NCBI GenBank assembly: GCA_020072965.1
Contig: JAIQFY010000057.1
Coordinates: forward strand, 1-32,398
DNA: 32,398 nucleotides
Direction: 5' to 3'
DNA from: Terriglobia bacterium
GTDB lineage: Bacteria; Acidobacteriota; Terriglobia; JAIQFV01
A program made the translations under genes and the position numbers. Below the pieces are notes generated by a model. It worked only from the letters and a program-made list of their open reading frames with translations, searched no databases and had not been told where the DNA came from. Below, one piece after another: positions 1 to 32,398 of the stretch (position 1 is the first letter of the stretch; each line of letters starts with the position of its first letter).

Positions 1-216
1 TCTTCGATCGGCACGGATAGAAGGTCGTTCCGGGAGCATTCTAAAAATCTCCCGAACTGAACAAAGAGCCACCACAGCCAAGTAAAAGATCCGTTCGCAA
101 GGAGCTTGACAAAAACGACCACATAGAAGGTCTCTGCAAATGGCAATTGCTCCAGAAAGTTCGGTCTCTTGACAATGACGAAACACCATTTCACGATTGC
201 AGAGATCTGACACTCG
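1..216 (+). repeat. Left copy of a long inverted repeat (partner at 32139-32354)
   Basis: Positions 1-216 are the reverse complement of 32139-32354, with position i pairing with 32355-i. I count 8 mismatches in 216 bp; the first 74 bp are identical, and the differences cluster at about 139-175. Identity stops sharply at 217. The copy is cut by the start of the window, so its true length is unknown. Read on the minus strand, the repeat is open in the same frame as the open stretch in the right copy, but this copy has no ATG and hits a TGA about 50 bp upstream of the repeat boundary. It may be a dispersed repeat or a piece of a duplicated gene. I do not recognise the sequence. Confidence 0.9.
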
Positions 217-415
217 TCATTATAAGATATTGTACATTCCCCAGAATAACGAGATAAGGATCCATACCATCATTGCCAAGTATATTGAAGTAAGGGTAAA
301 GAAACTGAAACTGTCAATTCTAGATTCGAATCAGGTAATCGATGAAAAGGAAATTATCTCGATTTGAAAGATTGTCGGTGCCTGCCCCGAGTCTTATGAT
401 ACTCGGATGAATGCC
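217..415. other. Intergenic stretch with a small hairpin
   Basis: No supported gene. The only structure I see is a 6-bp perfect stem (CCGAGT/ACTCGG, 387-392 and 401-406, 8-nt loop). It begins 14 nt beyond the stop codon of the minus-strand RAYT gene and outside its terminal repeat. There is no T-run after it, so it is at best a weak terminator or a REP-like hairpin. Confidence 0.5.
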
Positions 416-440
416 GAGGGTCACATCTTCGCATTTTGCA
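416..440. repeat. RAYT element 1, 3' terminal inverted repeat
   Basis: 25 bp, the exact reverse complement of 1562-1586. It overlaps the end of the transposase gene: the stop codon TGA (421-423 on the minus strand) is the TGA of the TGACCC motif, and the last four codons (Asn-Ala-Lys-Met) are encoded by the repeat. Confidence 0.9.
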
Positions 441-1458
441 ATTGCTGATGGGCGCGTTGGAGAAGGCGGGCCAGGGGAGGATCTTGCTGGCAGCGGCGGT
501 GGAAGCGCTGGAGGGCCGAGGCGACGGAGACGTAATCGATTCCCCCGGCGCGGTGACCTAGTTCGGCCAAGGTCATGGACTTGTGGTGGCGGGCGAGGCA
601 GAGAACGAGGTCTCTTCCCCAGTCGCCATGACGGTCCCAGAACTGGATCCACGACTCGTGCCGGAGGGCTTCGACCACTCCCACAATCTGTTCCCAAGAA
701 GGGGCGGGGGTGAGGAGCCTCAGGGAAGGCTGTTCTCGCCGATTCCCGTCCGCGAGACCGCGAATCCGGTCGACGAATACGGGGCTGCCGAGCACCAGTT
801 GGGCTTGCAGGTTGGTCCATGGCGACTCCAGGCGGCCTCCCTGAAGCGGGGCTTCAACGTAAGATCGGTACGCGGCGGGAGTCAGGCCCACTCGATTGAG
901 AAAAACCCCACTGCTCAGCCACGCGGGTGGCTGTTCCTCTCCGATGAAGGCCCGATAGGAGCTCCACCGGTAGGCGTGCAACGCTTCGAGCGCCGCGCGA
1001 AGGGAGTTCGGAGAGGGTTTCAGGTCGCCTCCCCATTGGCCAAAGGGTGGGTTGGCCTTGCCGAGTCCAAATTGTTGGGTTCGAATGGGATTGAGATGGA
1101 GATAGCGGGAGACTTCCAAGGCGGCGGCAGTGGGCTCCAGCAGCACGGCATGAAAACGCCCATGAAAGAGATGTCCGCTACGGTGATGCCGCCGATTGAA
1201 ATCGCTGCTGAAACCGCCATTGAGGGATTGCAGGGCCCGACTCAGATTGGCTTCCTGCGTCTCGACCTCGAGATGGTAGTGATTCTCCATCAGGACGAAG
1301 GCGTACAGGAACCAACGGAAGCGATCGACCACGTCGGCGAGCAGCTGAAGGAAGGCGAGGCGATCGTCGTCATCCCAAAAGATGGGGCGTCGTTCGTTGC
1401 CTCGAGCGGTAATGTGATACCAGGCGCCTGGAAAACTGATTCGAAGGGCTCTCACCAT
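421..1458 (-). CDS. REP-associated tyrosine transposase (RAYT), IS200-like Y1 family
   Basis: A 345-residue HUH single-strand transposase. The N-terminal Y1 domain starts with WYHITARGN (residues 13-21), followed by the metal-binding H-Y-H triad in LMENHYH (His60, His62). The probable catalytic tyrosine is Tyr119 in SRYLHLNPIR. The C-terminal third (about residues 250-345, around GDWGRDLVLCLARHH) resembles the helical DnaA-C-like domain often found in this RAYT subgroup. I chose the ATG at 1458 because the conserved MVRALRISFPG start sits there; an upstream in-frame ATG at 1566 would place extra residues across the terminal repeat. I see no good ribosome binding site. The last codons and the stop lie inside the 3' terminal repeat. 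The paralogue at 1755-2798 has the same residue numbering for the HYH motif and catalytic Tyr. Known RAYTs nick and join REP-type hairpins; the DNA substrate here is inferred to be the flanking repeats. Confidence 0.9.
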   Translation of the reverse strand: MVRALRISFPGAWYHITARGNERRPIFWDDDDRLAFLQLLADVVDRFRWFLYAFVLMENHYHLEVETQEANLSRALQSLNGGFSSDFNRRHHRSGHLFHGRFHAVLLEPTAAALEVSRYLHLNPIRTQQFGLGKANPPFGQWGGDLKPSPNSLRAALEALHAYRWSSYRAFIGEEQPPAWLSSGVFLNRVGLTPAAYRSYVEAPLQGGRLESPWTNLQAQLVLGSPVFVDRIRGLADGNRREQPSLRLLTPAPSWEQIVGVVEALRHESWIQFWDRHGDWGRDLVLCLARHHKSMTLAELGHRAGGIDYVSVASALQRFHRRCQQDPPLARLLQRAHQQLQNAKM

Positions 1459-1561
1459 CGCCAATGGAGGGGGAAAATAAAAAGCGGGGGGACACCACCG
1501 CCTTGATTTGTATCTCACTTTCAACCACTGCGCAATGAAAAAATGCAATGGCATGGCCAAA

Positions 1562-1586
1562 TGCAAAATGCGAAGATGTGACCCTC
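1562..1586. repeat. RAYT element 1, 5' terminal inverted repeat
   Basis: Perfect 25-bp inverted copy of 416-440, located 103 bp upstream of the transposase start at 1458. It is separated by only 15 bp from the inner repeat of RAYT element 2. Confidence 0.9.
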
Positions 1587-1754: not shown

Positions 1755-2798
1755 ATGCCGAGGCCATGGCGCATTCAGTGGGAGGGGTGCTGGTATCACG
1801 TTACCTCTCGGGGCAATGGACGAGGGAACATTTTTCATGATGACGAAGACCGCCTGCATTTCCTGGGTTTGTTGGGCCGCATGACAGAAAGGTTCAGGGT
1901 GCGGCTTCATGTTTACGCCCTCATGGACAATCATTATCATTGGTTGCTGCAGACGTTGGAAGCGAATTTGAGCCGAGCGATGCAGTGGTTCAACAGCGGG
2001 TATAGCAGTTGGTTCAACCGTCGCCATCGGCGACCGGGGCATCTGCTGCAAGGGCGGTACAAGGCGATTGTGGTACAACCGGAGCAGTGGGGGCTGGAGT
2101 TGAGCCGCTATGTGCACTTGAATCCCATTCGGGTGGAAAGATTCGAACTGGACAAACGACGGCAGCGCCAAAACCGCGCCGACGTGGGAAGTGAATTGCA
2201 AGTGGAGAGATGGAAGGATCGGATCGAGTATTTGAGAAACTATCGGTGGAGCTCTTATCGGGCCTATGTGGGATTAGACTCGTCGCCTTCGTGGTTGAAT
2301 TGTGCTGAGGTCTTGAGCTGGATGAGAGCTCCGGAGGGGAAGCAAAGACGGGCTTACCAGCAGTTTGTGGAAGCTGCCGCGCGGGAGGGATTGCAGCAGA
2401 CCCCATGGCGGCAGTTGCAGGCGCAGGTGGCCTTGGGAGACGACGCTTTCATACAGGGACTTGAAAAGCACTTGGAGAGACGGGAGCCGCAGGCGGCACG
2501 AGTTCTGCGGAGGCGACCGGATTTCGAAACAGTGGTTGGAATAGTGGAAGGAATGAGGGCGGAGAGCTGGGAGCAGTTCTCGAATCGGCATGGAGATTGG
2601 GGACGTGAGTTGGTGCTGTGCCTGGCTCACGAGCACTGCGAACTGACGCTGCAACAACTCGGACGATTAGTGGGCAAAATGGATTACAGCGCCGTCAGCA
2701 AAGCGATCGAGCGATTTCGGGTGCGAATGGCGACGGATCGAGAATTGGCTGCCCTGGTCGCTCAGGCTACCACGGAATTGTCGAATGTCCCAGTCTGA
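1755..2798 (+). CDS. REP-associated tyrosine transposase (RAYT), IS200-like Y1 family
   Basis: A 347-residue paralogue of the gene at 421-1458. The Y1 domain begins WYHVTSRGNGRGNIF (from residue 13), the HUH-type triad is in LMDNHYH (His60 and His62), and the candidate catalytic tyrosine is Tyr119 in LSRYVHLNPIR. The C-terminal domain again contains a GDWGRELVLCLAHEH segment. The ATG at 1755 has a GGAG six bases upstream and gives the conserved start MPRPWRIQWEG, so I accept it. The stop TGA at 2796-2798 lies inside the 3' terminal repeat, in the same position of the motif as in the paralogue. The two proteins are clearly related but well diverged along their length, so this is not a recent tandem duplication. 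All recognisable catalytic residues are present and the frame is intact. Confidence 0.92.
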   Translation: MPRPWRIQWEGCWYHVTSRGNGRGNIFHDDEDRLHFLGLLGRMTERFRVRLHVYALMDNHYHWLLQTLEANLSRAMQWFNSGYSSWFNRRHRRPGHLLQGRYKAIVVQPEQWGLELSRYVHLNPIRVERFELDKRRQRQNRADVGSELQVERWKDRIEYLRNYRWSSYRAYVGLDSSPSWLNCAEVLSWMRAPEGKQRRAYQQFVEAAAREGLQQTPWRQLQAQVALGDDAFIQGLEKHLERREPQAARVLRRRPDFETVVGIVEGMRAESWEQFSNRHGDWGRELVLCLAHEHCELTLQQLGRLVGKMDYSAVSKAIERFRVRMATDRELAALVAQATTELSNVPV

Positions 2799-2806
2799 CC
2801 CCCAAT
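2784..2806. repeat. RAYT element 2, 3' terminal inverted repeat
   Basis: 23 bp, inverted copy of 1602-1624. It encodes the last codons (Asn-Val-Pro-Val) and supplies the stop codon of the transposase. Its outer part (from 2791) is repeated directly at 4294-4313 on the far side of the inserted IS. Confidence 0.9.
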
Positions 2807-2810
2807 GTTG
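2791..2810 (+). repeat. 20-bp direct repeat flanking the IS (left copy)
   Basis: CAGTCTGACCCCCAATGTTG at 2791-2810 recurs exactly at 4294-4313. If the element is 2811-4293, this is an unusually long target-site duplication. Alternatively the IS inserted between two pre-existing copies of a REP-like repeat. A further partial copy (GACCCCCAATGTT) follows at 4312-4324. Confidence 0.85.
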
Positions 2811-2859
2811 TCATTAGCACATGATATGTCCGGTGTAAAAGACAAGTGAAGTGTCCGCT
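2809..2859. repeat. IS left terminal inverted repeat with two tandem sub-repeats
   Basis: Imperfect inverted match to 4244-4295. It contains two related sub-sites: 2814-2832 (TTAGCACATGATATGTCCG) and 2841-2859 (GACAAGTGAAGTGTCCGCT). Confidence 0.85.
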
Positions 2860-2898
2860 CGAAGCGGCGTAAGGTGGGGCTTTTGTCAGGAGGCCGAC

Positions 2899-4242
2899 AT
2901 GAAGCTCTACCCGGAGCGCGCGAGTGGGCGGGCCATGAAGATTCAAGAAGTGATCATGAGGGCGATGGCGAAGAAGATTAATTGGATTCAAGCTGCGGAG
3001 ATCATTGGAATCAGTCCGCGGCAGATGCGGCGGTGGGTCCAGCGATATGAGGAATATGGGTATGACGGGCTGTACGACCGGCGGTTGGGGCGGCCGAGTC
3101 CGAAACGGGTGGCGGTGGCGACGGTGGAGCAGGTGCTGGGGTTATATCAAGGCCGCTACTATGATTTGAATGTGCGGCACTTTCACGAGAAGTTGAGGGA
3201 GGAACACGGGATTCAGCTCAGCTACAGCTGGGTCAAGAAAGCGCTCCAGGAAGCCGGATTGGTGAAGAAGTACAAGCCCCGGGGGGTGCATCGACGACGA
3301 CGAGAGCGGCGCCCGCTGCCCGGCATGTTGGTGCACCTTGAGGGGAGTCGGCATCGGTGGTTTCAAGACGGGCGCTATTTCGATCTGATTGCGATACTGG
3401 ATGATGCCAGCAGCGAGATCTACTATGCGCAGCTGGTGGAAGAGGAATCCACCCGCACGGTGATGGCGGGGTTACGGGCCGTGGTCCAGGAGCGGGGGAT
3501 CTTCTGTGCGCTGTACAGCGATCGGGCCAGTCATTTCTTCTTGACGCCCAAGACGGGCGAGGGGGTGGATCGGGAGCGGGTCACGCAGGTCGGACGGGCG
3601 CTGGGGCAGCTGGGCATTGAGATGATCGCGGCCTATTCTCCGCAGGCGAGGGGGCGCAGTGAGCGCAGCTTTCAAACCTGGCAGGGACGACTCCCGCAGG
3701 AGCTTCGCCTGCGGGAGATGACCACGCTGGAAGAGGCCAATGGTTTCTTGCGGCAGCACTACATCGCCGAGTTCAATCGTCGCTTGGCGGTGAAAGCGGC
3801 CCAGCCGGGCACCGCCTTTGTCTCGGCGCGAGGGCGGAATCTGGAGGAGATTTTTGCCCTGCAACAGGAGCGGGTGGTGAACCGCGATAACACGGTTCAC
3901 TTCGACCATCAGGTCTTACAGATTGAGCCGACGCGCTGGCACCGCAGCCTGGCCGGCTGTCGCGTCATGGTTTTCCAGCACCTCGACGGAAGCCTCACCA
4001 TCGGGTACGGGGCTCACCGCCTCGGCCCTTACGACCCCGCCCCCCTCGGCACTACTGCGGTGCTTCGGCCCCGGGTGAGAGCGGTTGTGGAAAAGCTTGT
4101 GGACTCACAAGAAAGAAAAAAAGAAGCAAAAAAAGAAAGAAACCATGGCCTGATGGAAAAGTGGAAATCCCATAAAGCGGGATTCCCACTTTTCCACAGG
4201 CCTCATCATCACCTTTCTCAACCGAAGGTGCTGTCAACCTAA
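2899..4242 (+). CDS. ISNCY-family DDE transposase
   Basis: A 447-residue transposase. Residues 15-60 form a helix-turn-helix (AAEIIGISPRQMRRW), followed by a second DNA-binding segment (SYSWVKKALQEAGLV, about 108-122) and an rve-type catalytic core: RHRWFQDGRYFDLIAILDDA (151-170), YSDRASHFF (206-214) and ARGRSERSFQTWQGRLPQEL (250-269). Asp208 and Glu255 fit the second and third DDE positions. The first position, which I remember as Asp in related ISNCY proteins (H-I-D-G-S), is Glu148 here (HLEGS), so activity is doubtful. The ATG at 2899 is preceded by CAGGAGG at the right distance; an upstream in-frame GTG at 2851 would lie in the terminal repeat. The last 40 or so residues are Lys/His-rich and are read across a long hairpin (4147-4202). 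Confidence 0.9.
   Translation: MKLYPERASGRAMKIQEVIMRAMAKKINWIQAAEIIGISPRQMRRWVQRYEEYGYDGLYDRRLGRPSPKRVAVATVEQVLGLYQGRYYDLNVRHFHEKLREEHGIQLSYSWVKKALQEAGLVKKYKPRGVHRRRRERRPLPGMLVHLEGSRHRWFQDGRYFDLIAILDDASSEIYYAQLVEEESTRTVMAGLRAVVQERGIFCALYSDRASHFFLTPKTGEGVDRERVTQVGRALGQLGIEMIAAYSPQARGRSERSFQTWQGRLPQELRLREMTTLEEANGFLRQHYIAEFNRRLAVKAAQPGTAFVSARGRNLEEIFALQQERVVNRDNTVHFDHQVLQIEPTRWHRSLAGCRVMVFQHLDGSLTIGYGAHRLGPYDPAPLGTTAVLRPRVRAVVEKLVDSQERKKEAKKERNHGLMEKWKSHKAGFPLFHRPHHHLSQPKVLST
4147..4202. repeat. Long hairpin inside the 3' end of the IS transposase gene
   Basis: Arms 4147-4171 and 4179-4202 pair over about 24 bp with one bulged base (4153) and one mismatch, around a 7-nt loop. It lies in the last 100 bp of the coding sequence. 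It may limit read-through transcription or translation across the element, as described for some IS elements; that role is inferred. Confidence 0.8.
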
Positions 4243-4243
4243 A

Positions 4244-4295
4244 AGCGGACACTTCACTTGCTAAAAAAAGCGGACATTTTAATTTGCTAATGACA
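4244..4295. repeat. IS right terminal inverted repeat with two tandem sub-repeats
   Basis: Inverted counterpart of 2809-2859, with sub-sites at 4244-4264 and 4269-4290, both of the form AGCGGACA...GCTAA. Confidence 0.85.
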
Positions 4296-4313
4296 GTCTG
4301 ACCCCCAATGTTG
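4294..4313 (+). repeat. 20-bp direct repeat flanking the IS (right copy)
   Basis: Exact copy of 2791-2810. It is followed at once by a second GACCCCCAATGTT (4312-4324), so the target already carried a small tandem repeat. Confidence 0.85.
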
Positions 4314-4393
4314 ACCCCCAATGTTCTCTGCGGAGGGGAACATGCCAGGAAAATATTTTGGGGGGTTCCAAGATTCACTCGACAGATACTTTC

Positions 4394-4490
4394 GCCCCGC
4401 AAGCGGGGCTCGGATGTCATTGGGGACACCGGTACCCCACCCTCGCTCCGCCCCGCAAAGAACGCGGGACGGAGCTTCAGGTGGGGCTAC
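4394..4490. repeat. REP/BIME-like palindromes
   Basis: GCCCCGC-AA-GCGGGGC occupies 4394-4409. A larger imperfect palindrome spans 4432-4490: an outer stem (GTACCCCACC against GGTGGGGCTAC, one bulge), then GCTCCG/CGGAGC and CCCGC/GCGGG, closing a 7-nt loop, about 21 paired bases in all. A small GGCCC-TTC-GGGCC hairpin follows at about 4499-4511. Non-coding; probably related to the RAYT/REP material next to it. Confidence 0.7.
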
Positions 4491-4636
4491 ACTCTGACGG
4501 CCCTTCGGGCCTAAAGGGACAAAAGCCTCACTCGAAAAGCGTCCACTCATGGGAATCGAATCTTCCTCCGACATTGATTATGGCCTTCAATTTCGGAATT
4601 CGGGATCATCCGTGTGAGCGACCTGCTATCGTCACT

Positions 4637-4666
4637 AATCCTGTTGAATCCTGTTAAATCCTGTTT
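4637..4666 (+). repeat. Three tandem 10-bp repeats (AATCCTGTTN)
   Basis: AATCCTGTTG, AATCCTGTTA and AATCCTGTTT follow one another without gaps. No gene is visible between 4314 and 4795; besides these repeats and the palindromes the stretch holds only the promoter of the next gene. Confidence 0.9.
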
Positions 4667-4728
4667 CAAGCCTTCTGAGGCCTTCCCCGCGCCGAAGAAC
4701 GAAACCTCAGTTGTTGTTGAAAGAAGGA

Positions 4729-31167: not shown

Positions 31168-32076
31168 ATGACGATCATTTACTCCGACCGGTACGACCTG
31201 AATCTGGGCGATCATGTGTTCCCGACGGTAAAATACCGGAAAACGAAGGAGCGCGTGCTGGCCGACGGGCTTTGCTCCGCCCCCGAGATTGTGAGTCCCC
31301 CGCCGGCCGACGATGAACAGGTCGCGCTGGTGCACACCCGCGAATACATCCGGAAGCTCAGAAAGGGAAAGCTGAGTACGGAGGAGATCCTGCGGATGGA
31401 AGTACCCTACTCCCGGGAGGGCGTGGATGCGGTCTGGTTATCGACGGGCGGGACGATCGCCGCCGCTCGACATGCGCTCACGGAAGGAATCAGCGTTAAT
31501 TTGGGGGGCGGGTTCCACCACGCTTTTCCGGATCATGGAGAAGGGTTTTGCATGCTCAATGACGTGGCAGTGGCCATCCGCGCCCTCCAGAAGGAATCCG
31601 TCATTCGCACGGCCATGACTGTGGATTGCGACGTCCACCATGGCAACGGCACCGCTGAGATTTTTCACGCCGATCCCACGGTCTTCACCCTCTCCATCCA
31701 CCAGCTCCACAACTATCCCGCCATCAAACCTCAATCAAACATCGATATTGATCTTCAAGACGGGACCCGGGATGAAGAATATCTGGAAAAGCTGGCCGAG
31801 GGACTTGATAAGGCCCTGGCAGAATTCAAGCCTGAGCTCATCGTCTACCTCGCAGGGGCGGATCCATTTCAATATGACCAATTGGGCGGACTCTCGCTCA
31901 CACTTCAGGGCCTTCATCGGCGGGATATGTTGGTCTTTCAAACGGCGCGAGCCCGAAGCATTCCCGTGGCGGTGACTCTGGCCGGCGGCTATGCCTACCG
32001 GGTTGAAGACACGGTCACCATTCACACCAACACCGTCCGAGCCGCCAAGGACGTCTTCACCACTCAAAGCTCATAG
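31168..32076 (+). CDS. Histone deacetylase-family amidohydrolase (arginase-like fold)
   Basis: 302 residues, full length for bacterial members. Active-site pieces: GGGFHHAFPDHGEGFC (His117, His118), TVDCDVHHGNGTAEIF (zinc ligands Asp155 and His157), LAGADPFQYDQLG (Asp232, third ligand) and LAGGYAYRV (Tyr275). It also has FCMLNDVAVAI of the acetylpolyamine/AcuC group. Substrates in bacteria include acetylpolyamines, acetyl-lysine proteins and other amides; the sequence alone does not decide. It starts three bases after dacB, so the two are cotranscribed, though no functional link is established. The stop at 32074-32076 is followed in the same frame by an open stretch of about 90 codons that runs into the terminal repeat, most likely by chance. 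Confidence 0.93.
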   Translation: MTIIYSDRYDLNLGDHVFPTVKYRKTKERVLADGLCSAPEIVSPPPADDEQVALVHTREYIRKLRKGKLSTEEILRMEVPYSREGVDAVWLSTGGTIAAARHALTEGISVNLGGGFHHAFPDHGEGFCMLNDVAVAIRALQKESVIRTAMTVDCDVHHGNGTAEIFHADPTVFTLSIHQLHNYPAIKPQSNIDIDLQDGTRDEEYLEKLAEGLDKALAEFKPELIVYLAGADPFQYDQLGGLSLTLQGLHRRDMLVFQTARARSIPVAVTLAGGYAYRVEDTVTIHTNTVRAAKDVFTTQSS

Positions 32077-32138
32077 GCAGGGTGGCGCATACATCGCGTT
32101 TTGTGCGATGTGTGCGCGTCGTCTGAGGGAATGAATGT

Positions 32139-32354
32139 CGAGTGTCAGATCTCTGCAATCGTGAAATGGTGTTTCGTCATCGTCAACACAGCGAACTTTC
32201 TTGACCAATTGCCATATGCAGAGACCTTCTATGTGGTCGTTTTTGTCAAGCTCCTTGCAAACGGATCTTTTACTTGGCTGTGGTGGCTCTTTGTTCAGTT
32301 CGGGAGATTTTTAGAATGCTCCCGGAACGACCTTCTATCCGTGCCGATCGAAGA
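32139..32354 (-). repeat. Right copy of the long inverted repeat (partner at 1-216)
   Basis: Reverse complement of 1-216 with 8 mismatches by my count. On the plus strand it lies in a frame that is open from after the stop at 32074 to a TGA at 32356-32358; the predicted peptide is hydrophobic (FTWLWWLFVQFGRFLECS near its end) and unknown to me. Differences between the copies, read in this frame, include three silent changes and Asp/Glu and Tyr/Phe exchanges, a weak hint of coding. The copies share the frame, but neither has a convincing start. The 44 bases after the repeat (32355-32398) and 32077-32138 before it hold nothing recognisable. Confidence 0.9.
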
Positions 32355-32398
32355 ATGATCCGACACCCAATCCTGGTATTCGCCCCAGGGCAAATTAG

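What the first reader, a model, noticed from the sequence alone, without database searches (positions are those of the whole stretch)
32139..32354. A 216-bp inverted repeat bounds the window on both sides
The left copy starts at base 1 and the right copy ends 44 bases before the end. If the window is a whole contig, the assembly probably broke in a repeat; if it is part of a chromosome, 32 kb lie between inverted repeats and could invert. The copies differ at 8 positions, so they are not one sequence read twice. Both are open in the same frame with partly conservative changes, which leaves a duplicated gene fragment as an option.
Basis: partly seen in the sequence, partly recalled or inferred. 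Interest (0 to 1): 0.5.

Follow-up and report, generated by a model that had tools for sequence, protein, structure and literature searches.

The report
Two inverted RNA-guided insertion sequence ends
The repeat at both ends of this contig is a short palindromic repeat with the same jumping gene landed in it, once at each end and facing opposite ways; the jumping gene belongs to a known kind that chooses its landing site with its own guide RNA, so the repeat is largely ordinary and also explains why the assembly stopped there.

Summary
The repeat is real: 221 bp, 96% (1-221 and 32134-32354). It is a composite. The inner ~92 bp is a palindromic, REP/BIME-like repeat with dispersed copies. The outer 129 bp (173 bp on the right) is the right end of an IS110-family insertion sequence whose long non-coding region lies downstream of the transposase (IS1111-like layout), inserted at GTC-AG^GTCTCTGCA. 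The window is a whole contig. In the host 7 right ends were found, 6 within 44 nt of a contig end and one at 215 nt; in a sister species 4 of 5 lie at contig ends, the fifth being a degenerate piece. Left ends were found (6 and 4), all joined to GTCAG. Synteny with the sister species places contigs C59 and C21 beyond the two elements, with the window in unchanged orientation. In 13 relatives (host copy C31 included), guides in a covarying RNA loop match each element's own target: right guides n=13, left n=10, 0 of 100,000 permutations each. For C31 itself the match is only partial. A duplicated gene fragment and a single locus read twice are not supported. New member of a known kind.

The parts
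1..129 (+). Right end (RE) of an IS110-family element, transposase sense left to right; the AG core is 128-129; the rest of the element lies beyond the contig start
   Evidence: homologous ends lie downstream of IS110-family transposases in L050 and L051
10..24 (+). GGCACGGATAGAAGG, internal copy of the RE terminus (proposed donor guide of the bridge/seek RNA)
   Evidence: Position; a like copy next to a like terminus in the relatives
106..111 (+). TTGACA, conserved near the RE terminus (proposed -35 of a promoter formed when the element circularises)
   Evidence: promoter function inferred
130..221 (.). Palindromic REP/BIME-like repeat interrupted by the left IS copy; its missing outer arm end lies on contig C59
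   Evidence: Dispersed copies; joined flanks restore the palindrome
32134..32225 (.). Palindromic REP/BIME-like repeat interrupted by the right IS copy; its missing outer arm end lies on contig C21
32226..32398 (-). Right end of a second copy of the same element, transposase sense right to left; the core (CT on this strand) is 32226-32227; reaches the contig end
32331..32345 (-). Internal copy of the RE terminus in the right element (proposed donor guide)

Best explanation
Each end of the window is a REP/BIME-like palindrome into which one copy of a multi-copy IS110-family insertion sequence (IS1111-like layout, non-coding region downstream of the transposase) has inserted at the same place, after GTC-AG and before GTCTCTGCA. 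The two elements point in opposite directions with both right ends facing the window, so that target plus IS end reads as a 221-bp inverted repeat. The contig stops there because the element (about 1.55 kb in the relative L051) is present at several places and the assembler could not cross it. Inferred mechanism, from the published behaviour of the family: the element excises as a circle, is expressed from a promoter made at the joined ends, and its transposase carries a bridge/seek RNA whose target loop pairs with the REP arm and whose donor loop pairs with the element's own ends; strand exchange takes place at the AG core. Shown here: the composition, the insertion sites, the positions of the copies, the synteny, and guide-target matching in relatives. 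Inferred: the circle, the promoter, the RNA's expression and the reaction.
For: Outer and inner parts have different genomic distributions. 6 of 7 host RE copies lie within 44 nt of a contig end; 4 of 5 sister RE matches lie at contig ends. LE copies: 5 of 6 at contig ends in the host, 4 of 4 in the sister, 10 of 10 reading GTCAG|ATCCTATGAA. RE junctions: 11 of 11 CATAGAAG|G. Homologous ends follow IS110-family transposases in L050 and L051, which pass the NF033542 cut-off in 2 of 2. C31 starts with a C-terminus PEGAEFKPVV-stop like the relatives'. Joined flanks restore the palindrome at both sites. Synteny: C59 - C95 - C21. Guides match own targets: 0 of 100,000 permutations for right (n=13) and left (n=10) guides; helices around them covary.
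Against: The transposase body is not in the host or sister assembly (no match at E up to 1e-30), so the host element is known from its ends and from C31 only. For C31 the left guide matches 3 of 4 non-core bases and, in the unbiased scan, its own right target ranks only third of 13, at a site outside the loop; at the aligned loop position only five bases pair (read by eye). C86's target and 2 of 4 sister targets are not in a REP that I recognise. The -10-like part of the proposed junction promoter is weak (GATCCT). Single-sequence folding of C31's non-coding region is no better than shuffles (z -0.28).
Confidence: 0.93

Rival explanations
1. The two ends are one locus read twice, or the window is a small circle closed through a single repeat.
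For: Identical repeats at both ends of a contig are the usual sign of a circle or of a duplicated end.
Against: 8 differences; both ends carry the same (right) IS end in inverted orientation, whereas a circle through one element would show one right and one left end; different neighbours by synteny.
Confidence: 0.02
2. A duplicated gene fragment, kept open in one frame.
For: One frame is open in both copies.
Against: The frame runs across a REP/IS junction; the IS part is the non-coding region read antisense in 2 of 2 relatives with annotated-length transposase frames next to it; the inner part also occurs without the outer part and the outer part beside other sequences.
Confidence: 0.01
3. 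The two IS copies make the 32 kb a functional unit: an invertible segment or a composite transposon.
For: Two copies of one element in inverted orientation flank the segment.
Against: Most of the segment (4713-32077, with small gaps) is collinear in the sister species and has the same orientation relative to the neighbours, where no copy of the element was found at these two places; it carries housekeeping genes such as DNA polymerase III alpha, AccA and topoisomerase I.
Confidence: 0.04

Closest known systems
IS1111-group elements with a seekRNA, e.g. ISPa11 in a Pseudomonas aeruginosa REP (PMC11187229: abstract and sections 6, 8, 9, 10, 13 read)
   Same: Long non-coding region downstream of tnp; top-strand match 5' of bottom-strand match in the RNA; insertion into a repeated palindrome; GL-P----SG motif in the transposase
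   Different: Transposase of the relatives 379-383 aa, longer than the 330-350 aa given for IS1111; subterminal inverted repeat only about 5 bp in the host element (CTATG/CATAG)
IS621 and its bridge RNA (PMC11208160: passages read)
   Same: IS110-family recombinase; target and donor guides; insertion into REPs
   Different: IS621 has its bridge RNA in the left end, this element in the right end; core CT in IS621 as recalled, AG here; sequence relation to the IS621 transposase is distant (E 4.8e-6)
ISPpu9, seven copies in REPs of Pseudomonas putida KT2440 (PMC8450116: abstract start in a search listing only)
   Same: IS in several REP copies of one genome
   Different: Not compared in sequence
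REP sequences with RAYT transposases (PMC2817692: search listing only)
   Same: The target palindrome is dispersed, and B-like arms stand on both sides of a Y1-transposase gene on C15
   Different: Low copy number; no mobilisation tested; the arm matches on C15 are short (E 0.1 and 0.7, seen by eye)

Membership tests
IS110 family | DEDD transposase with PF01548 and PF02371 domains | tested here: met
   Tested on relatives only: PF02371 above cut-off in 2 of 2, PF01548 above cut-off in 1 of 2; NF033542 above cut-off in 2 of 2. The host's own transposase is unassembled except for 10 C-terminal residues and 12-13 N-terminal residues.
IS110 family | Sequence-specific insertion at a short core, with no long target duplication | tested here: met
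   10 of 10 left junctions GTCAG|ATCC, 11 of 11 right junctions CATAGAAG|G; joined flanks at the two window sites give an intact palindrome with one AG
IS110 family | Bridge/seek RNA with target and donor guides | tested here: inconclusive
   Met in the relatives as a group; partial in the host copy C31. RNA not shown.
IS1111 group | Long non-coding region downstream of tnp | tested here: met
   Relatives L050-L053 and the host copy C31
IS1111 group | Subterminal inverted repeats of 7-17 bp | tested here: not met
   Host element about 5 bp by eye (CTATG/CATAG); the relative L053 has 8 bp (TATGAGGC). So the element is filed under the IS110 family with IS1111-like layout, not as an IS1111 member.
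IS1111 group | Transposase of 330-350 aa | tested here: not met
   379 and 383 aa in the two nearest complete relatives
REP/BIME | Dispersed, non-coding palindromic repeat | tested here: met
   Copies at C70, C1 (2), C19 (2), C43 and C53; palindromic fold of the joined sites and of C70
REP/BIME | Association with a RAYT transposase | tested here: inconclusive
   Arms on both sides of a PF01797 gene at C15:177961-178287; mobilisation untested

The most novel reading that the evidence does not exclude
Natural retargeting between sister species: the same IS keeps its left target (G[GT]GTC-AG) but reads a different right half (GTC in 7 of 7 host junctions, GC in 4 of 4 sister junctions), because the right guide of its bridge RNA has changed, so that each lineage of the element colonises its own host's repeat families.
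Probability: 0.4. Interest if true: 0.45.

Novelty: new member of a known kind. Interest (0 to 1): 0.3.

Why it matters
One cause explains a set of contig breaks in two genomes. The element belongs to a branch of RNA-guided IS110-family elements with ~380-aa transposases in which both target guides can be read from sequence. It also gives a sister-species pair in which retargeting of such an element to different repeats could be tested directly.

Tried and rejected
Rfam: no match in 4 loci at E up to 0.5. A pattern scan of viral contigs gave 3 hits, which I judged by eye to be chance matches without the element's ends. Folding C31's non-coding region alone gave no signal. My first hand-written structure was off by one column in helix 2; I then used the RNAalifold structure of the same alignment, so the cells-paired control leans towards it. 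I considered the two IS110-family genes on C84 and C39 as the element's transposase; their flanks, read by eye, do not carry this element's ends. A small circle was rejected because both window ends carry the right end. I did not identify the organism.

Selection in the guide test: 25 candidates were looked at (20 plasmid loci L072-L091 out of 268 plasmid records with a match, plus L050-L053 and C31) and 13 were used, those with both a donor copy and a right end of the expected form. Left out: L078 (donor copy, no right end found), L079 (imperfect donor copy), L081-L083 and L085-L091 (one or both missing). The right flank of L052 and the loop anchor of L053 were set by hand after the script had misplaced them. 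C31's own left flank is unknown, so the host consensus was used. L072, L074, L076 and L080 look alike and are not fully independent. In the ranking, ties count as first. Weak hits left out of the left-end count: 3 in the host, 2 in the sister (E 0.33-0.62).

Full report
Observation. The inverted repeat exists and is slightly longer than stated: 1-221 against 32134-32354, 96%. The 8 differences are confirmed; 7 fall in the inner part and 1 in the outer part. The window is a whole contig, C95 of 108, of a 5.9-Mb genome, here called the host.

Two repeats, not one. Searching the genome with each end splits the repeat. The outer part (window 1-129 and 32226-32398) is found at 7 places: both window ends, C82, C53, C67, C31 and C86. 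Six lie within 44 nt of a contig end; C31's lies 215 nt from one. The inner part has further copies at C70, C1 (two), C19 (two), C43 and C53, plus shorter pieces. Of these only C53's is close to a contig end, where it adjoins the outer part; a partial arm also stands beside the left end on C21. The inner part is a palindrome: joined to the flanks beyond the IS copies, both window sites read GAGTGTCAGGTCTCTGCA...TGCAGAGATCTGACACTC, like the uninterrupted copy on C70. Similar arms stand on both sides of a Y1-transposase gene on C15 (short matches, E 0.1 and 0.7; seen by eye; the gene). It is therefore most likely a REP/BIME element, but its mobilisation was not tested.

The outer part is an IS end. 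A 20-base pattern shared by host and sister copies gave two records in the scan of genome contigs: a Desulfobacterales MAG (L050) and an Anaerolineales MAG (L051). In both, a like end (GGCACGGATAGAAGG ... TTGAC ... CATAGAAG) lies downstream of the stop codon of a gene of 379 or 383 aa. The two proteins pass the PF02371 cut-off in 2 of 2, the PF01548 cut-off in 1 of 2 and the cut-off of NF033542, 'IS110 family RNA-guided transposase', in 2 of 2. Their profile finds the ISCro4 and IS621 transposases among solved structures at E 2.5e-6 and 4.8e-6. Contig C31, whose copy is diverged, begins with PEGAEFKPVV and a stop, like the relatives' C-termini, followed by a complete non-coding region and the right end. 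The transposase body was not found in the host or in the sister (no match at E up to 1e-30; 2 of 399 genomes of the class had one), as expected for a collapsed multi-copy element; short fragments would have been missed at that threshold. The two PF01548 genes of the host belong to other elements.

The other end. The end of contig C21 gave the left end: 6 copies in the host, 5 at contig ends and one truncated inside C69, and 4 of 4 at contig ends in the sister. All 10 read GTCAG|ATCCTATGAA. The 11 main right junctions, 7 host and 4 sister, all read CATAGAAG|G. This fits an AG core shared by element and target. Right halves of the host targets: GTCTCTGCA (4, the palindrome of the window; C82 holds only half of it), GTCTCCGCATTC in a second palindrome (2, C31 and C67), GTCGGTCTG (1, C86, no REP recognised). 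Sister: GCACCGACA (2), GCACTATTT (1), GCTCAATTC (1). A fifth sister match, a degenerate 67-nt piece on C43, sits inside the palindrome type of the window.

Synteny. Most of the window (4713-32077, with small gaps) aligns collinearly with sister contig C10 in blocks of 80-89% identity; 1805-4712 does not align, and 1599-1804 aligns at a place that C59 also matches. C59 read backwards stops about 300 bp before the counterpart of 4713, and C21 read backwards starts about 390 bp after the counterpart of 32077. C59 and C21 each carry a left end on the side facing the window. The order C59 - IS - window - IS - C21 follows. On the left it is less clean, because the first 4.7 kb of the window is mostly absent there and a short piece occurs twice in the host (74% alike). 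The link rests on synteny, not on reads. The sister shows no copy of the element at these two places, and the segment has the same orientation relative to its neighbours.

Guides. Between the stop codon and the donor copy the relatives have a loop: a stem; a 5' strand complementary to the top strand of the right target; a hairpin; a 3' strand like the left target with AG; then the other half of the stem. Thirteen of 25 examined elements were used (see Tried and rejected for the choice and hand corrections). Right guides: summed score with own targets 103.0, against 84.2 on average with shuffled targets, 0 of 100,000 shuffles as high; 11 of 13 rank their own target first, ties included, although L050's best site lies outside the loop; L077 ranks its own second and C31 third. 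Left guides, n = 10: 30 of 40 non-core bases against 13.9, 0 of 100,000; L072 matches only 1 of 4. Helices: 10 of 13 pairs show changes on both sides, 90.3% of cells are paired, 0 of 500 shuffles as high on each of five measures, and every slid version scores lower; the structure was derived from the same alignment. The order, top-strand match before bottom-strand match, is the one published for IS1111 elements (PMC11187229, section 9).

The host's own guide. C31 has the same loop, with GGGGCAG against the target GGGTCAG on the left, and on the right AGACC, which pairs with the core G and GTCT; the distal bases do not match (read by eye). The unbiased scan does not pick this site. C31 may be a decaying copy, since its donor copy differs from the others. 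For the host the guide is thus supported by position and partial match only.

What it is not. A single locus read twice is made unlikely by the differences, by the two right ends and by the different neighbours.

Novelty. REP targeting by elements of this family and guidance by their RNA are in print (PMC11187229: abstract and sections 6, 8, 9, 10, 13 read; PMC11208160: passages read). Natural redirection is reported there for ISEc11/ISXne4 (PMC11187229, section 10). Four library searches with general terms showed me no paper on this element, but none was aimed at it. The difference between host and sister in the right half of the target may be a second case of redirection; it could not be tested, because the sister's guide region is not assembled.

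Noticed in passing
window 421-1566 (-), arms 399-444 and 1558-1603: A RAYT-like Y1 transposase (PF01797; NCBIfam REP_Tyr_transpos 61 bits, below its cut-off of 80) framed by inverted copies of another REP-like repeat.
   Followed up: partly
window 1755-2798 (+): A second Y1 transposase gene beside the first; the host genome has 36 PF01797 matches, a large number.
   Followed up: no
window 32076-32133: A third REP-like repeat just after the histone-deacetylase-like gene, with more than 20 further matches in the host and many in the sister.
   Followed up: no
L023 (G000:C39, contig end): Another IS110-family element, cut by the contig end, that begins next to a REP of the type framing the window's RAYT gene: a second IS that may target REPs here.
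   Followed up: no
L060 (G000:C69:22703-22820): A truncated left end of the window's element followed by a REP-like palindrome, apparently a deletion remnant.
   Followed up: no
L050 (JANQIE010000221.1): The Desulfobacterales relative appears to sit in a different palindromic repeat (GGTGGGC...GCCCACC type), and its contig also ends just past the element.
   Followed up: no
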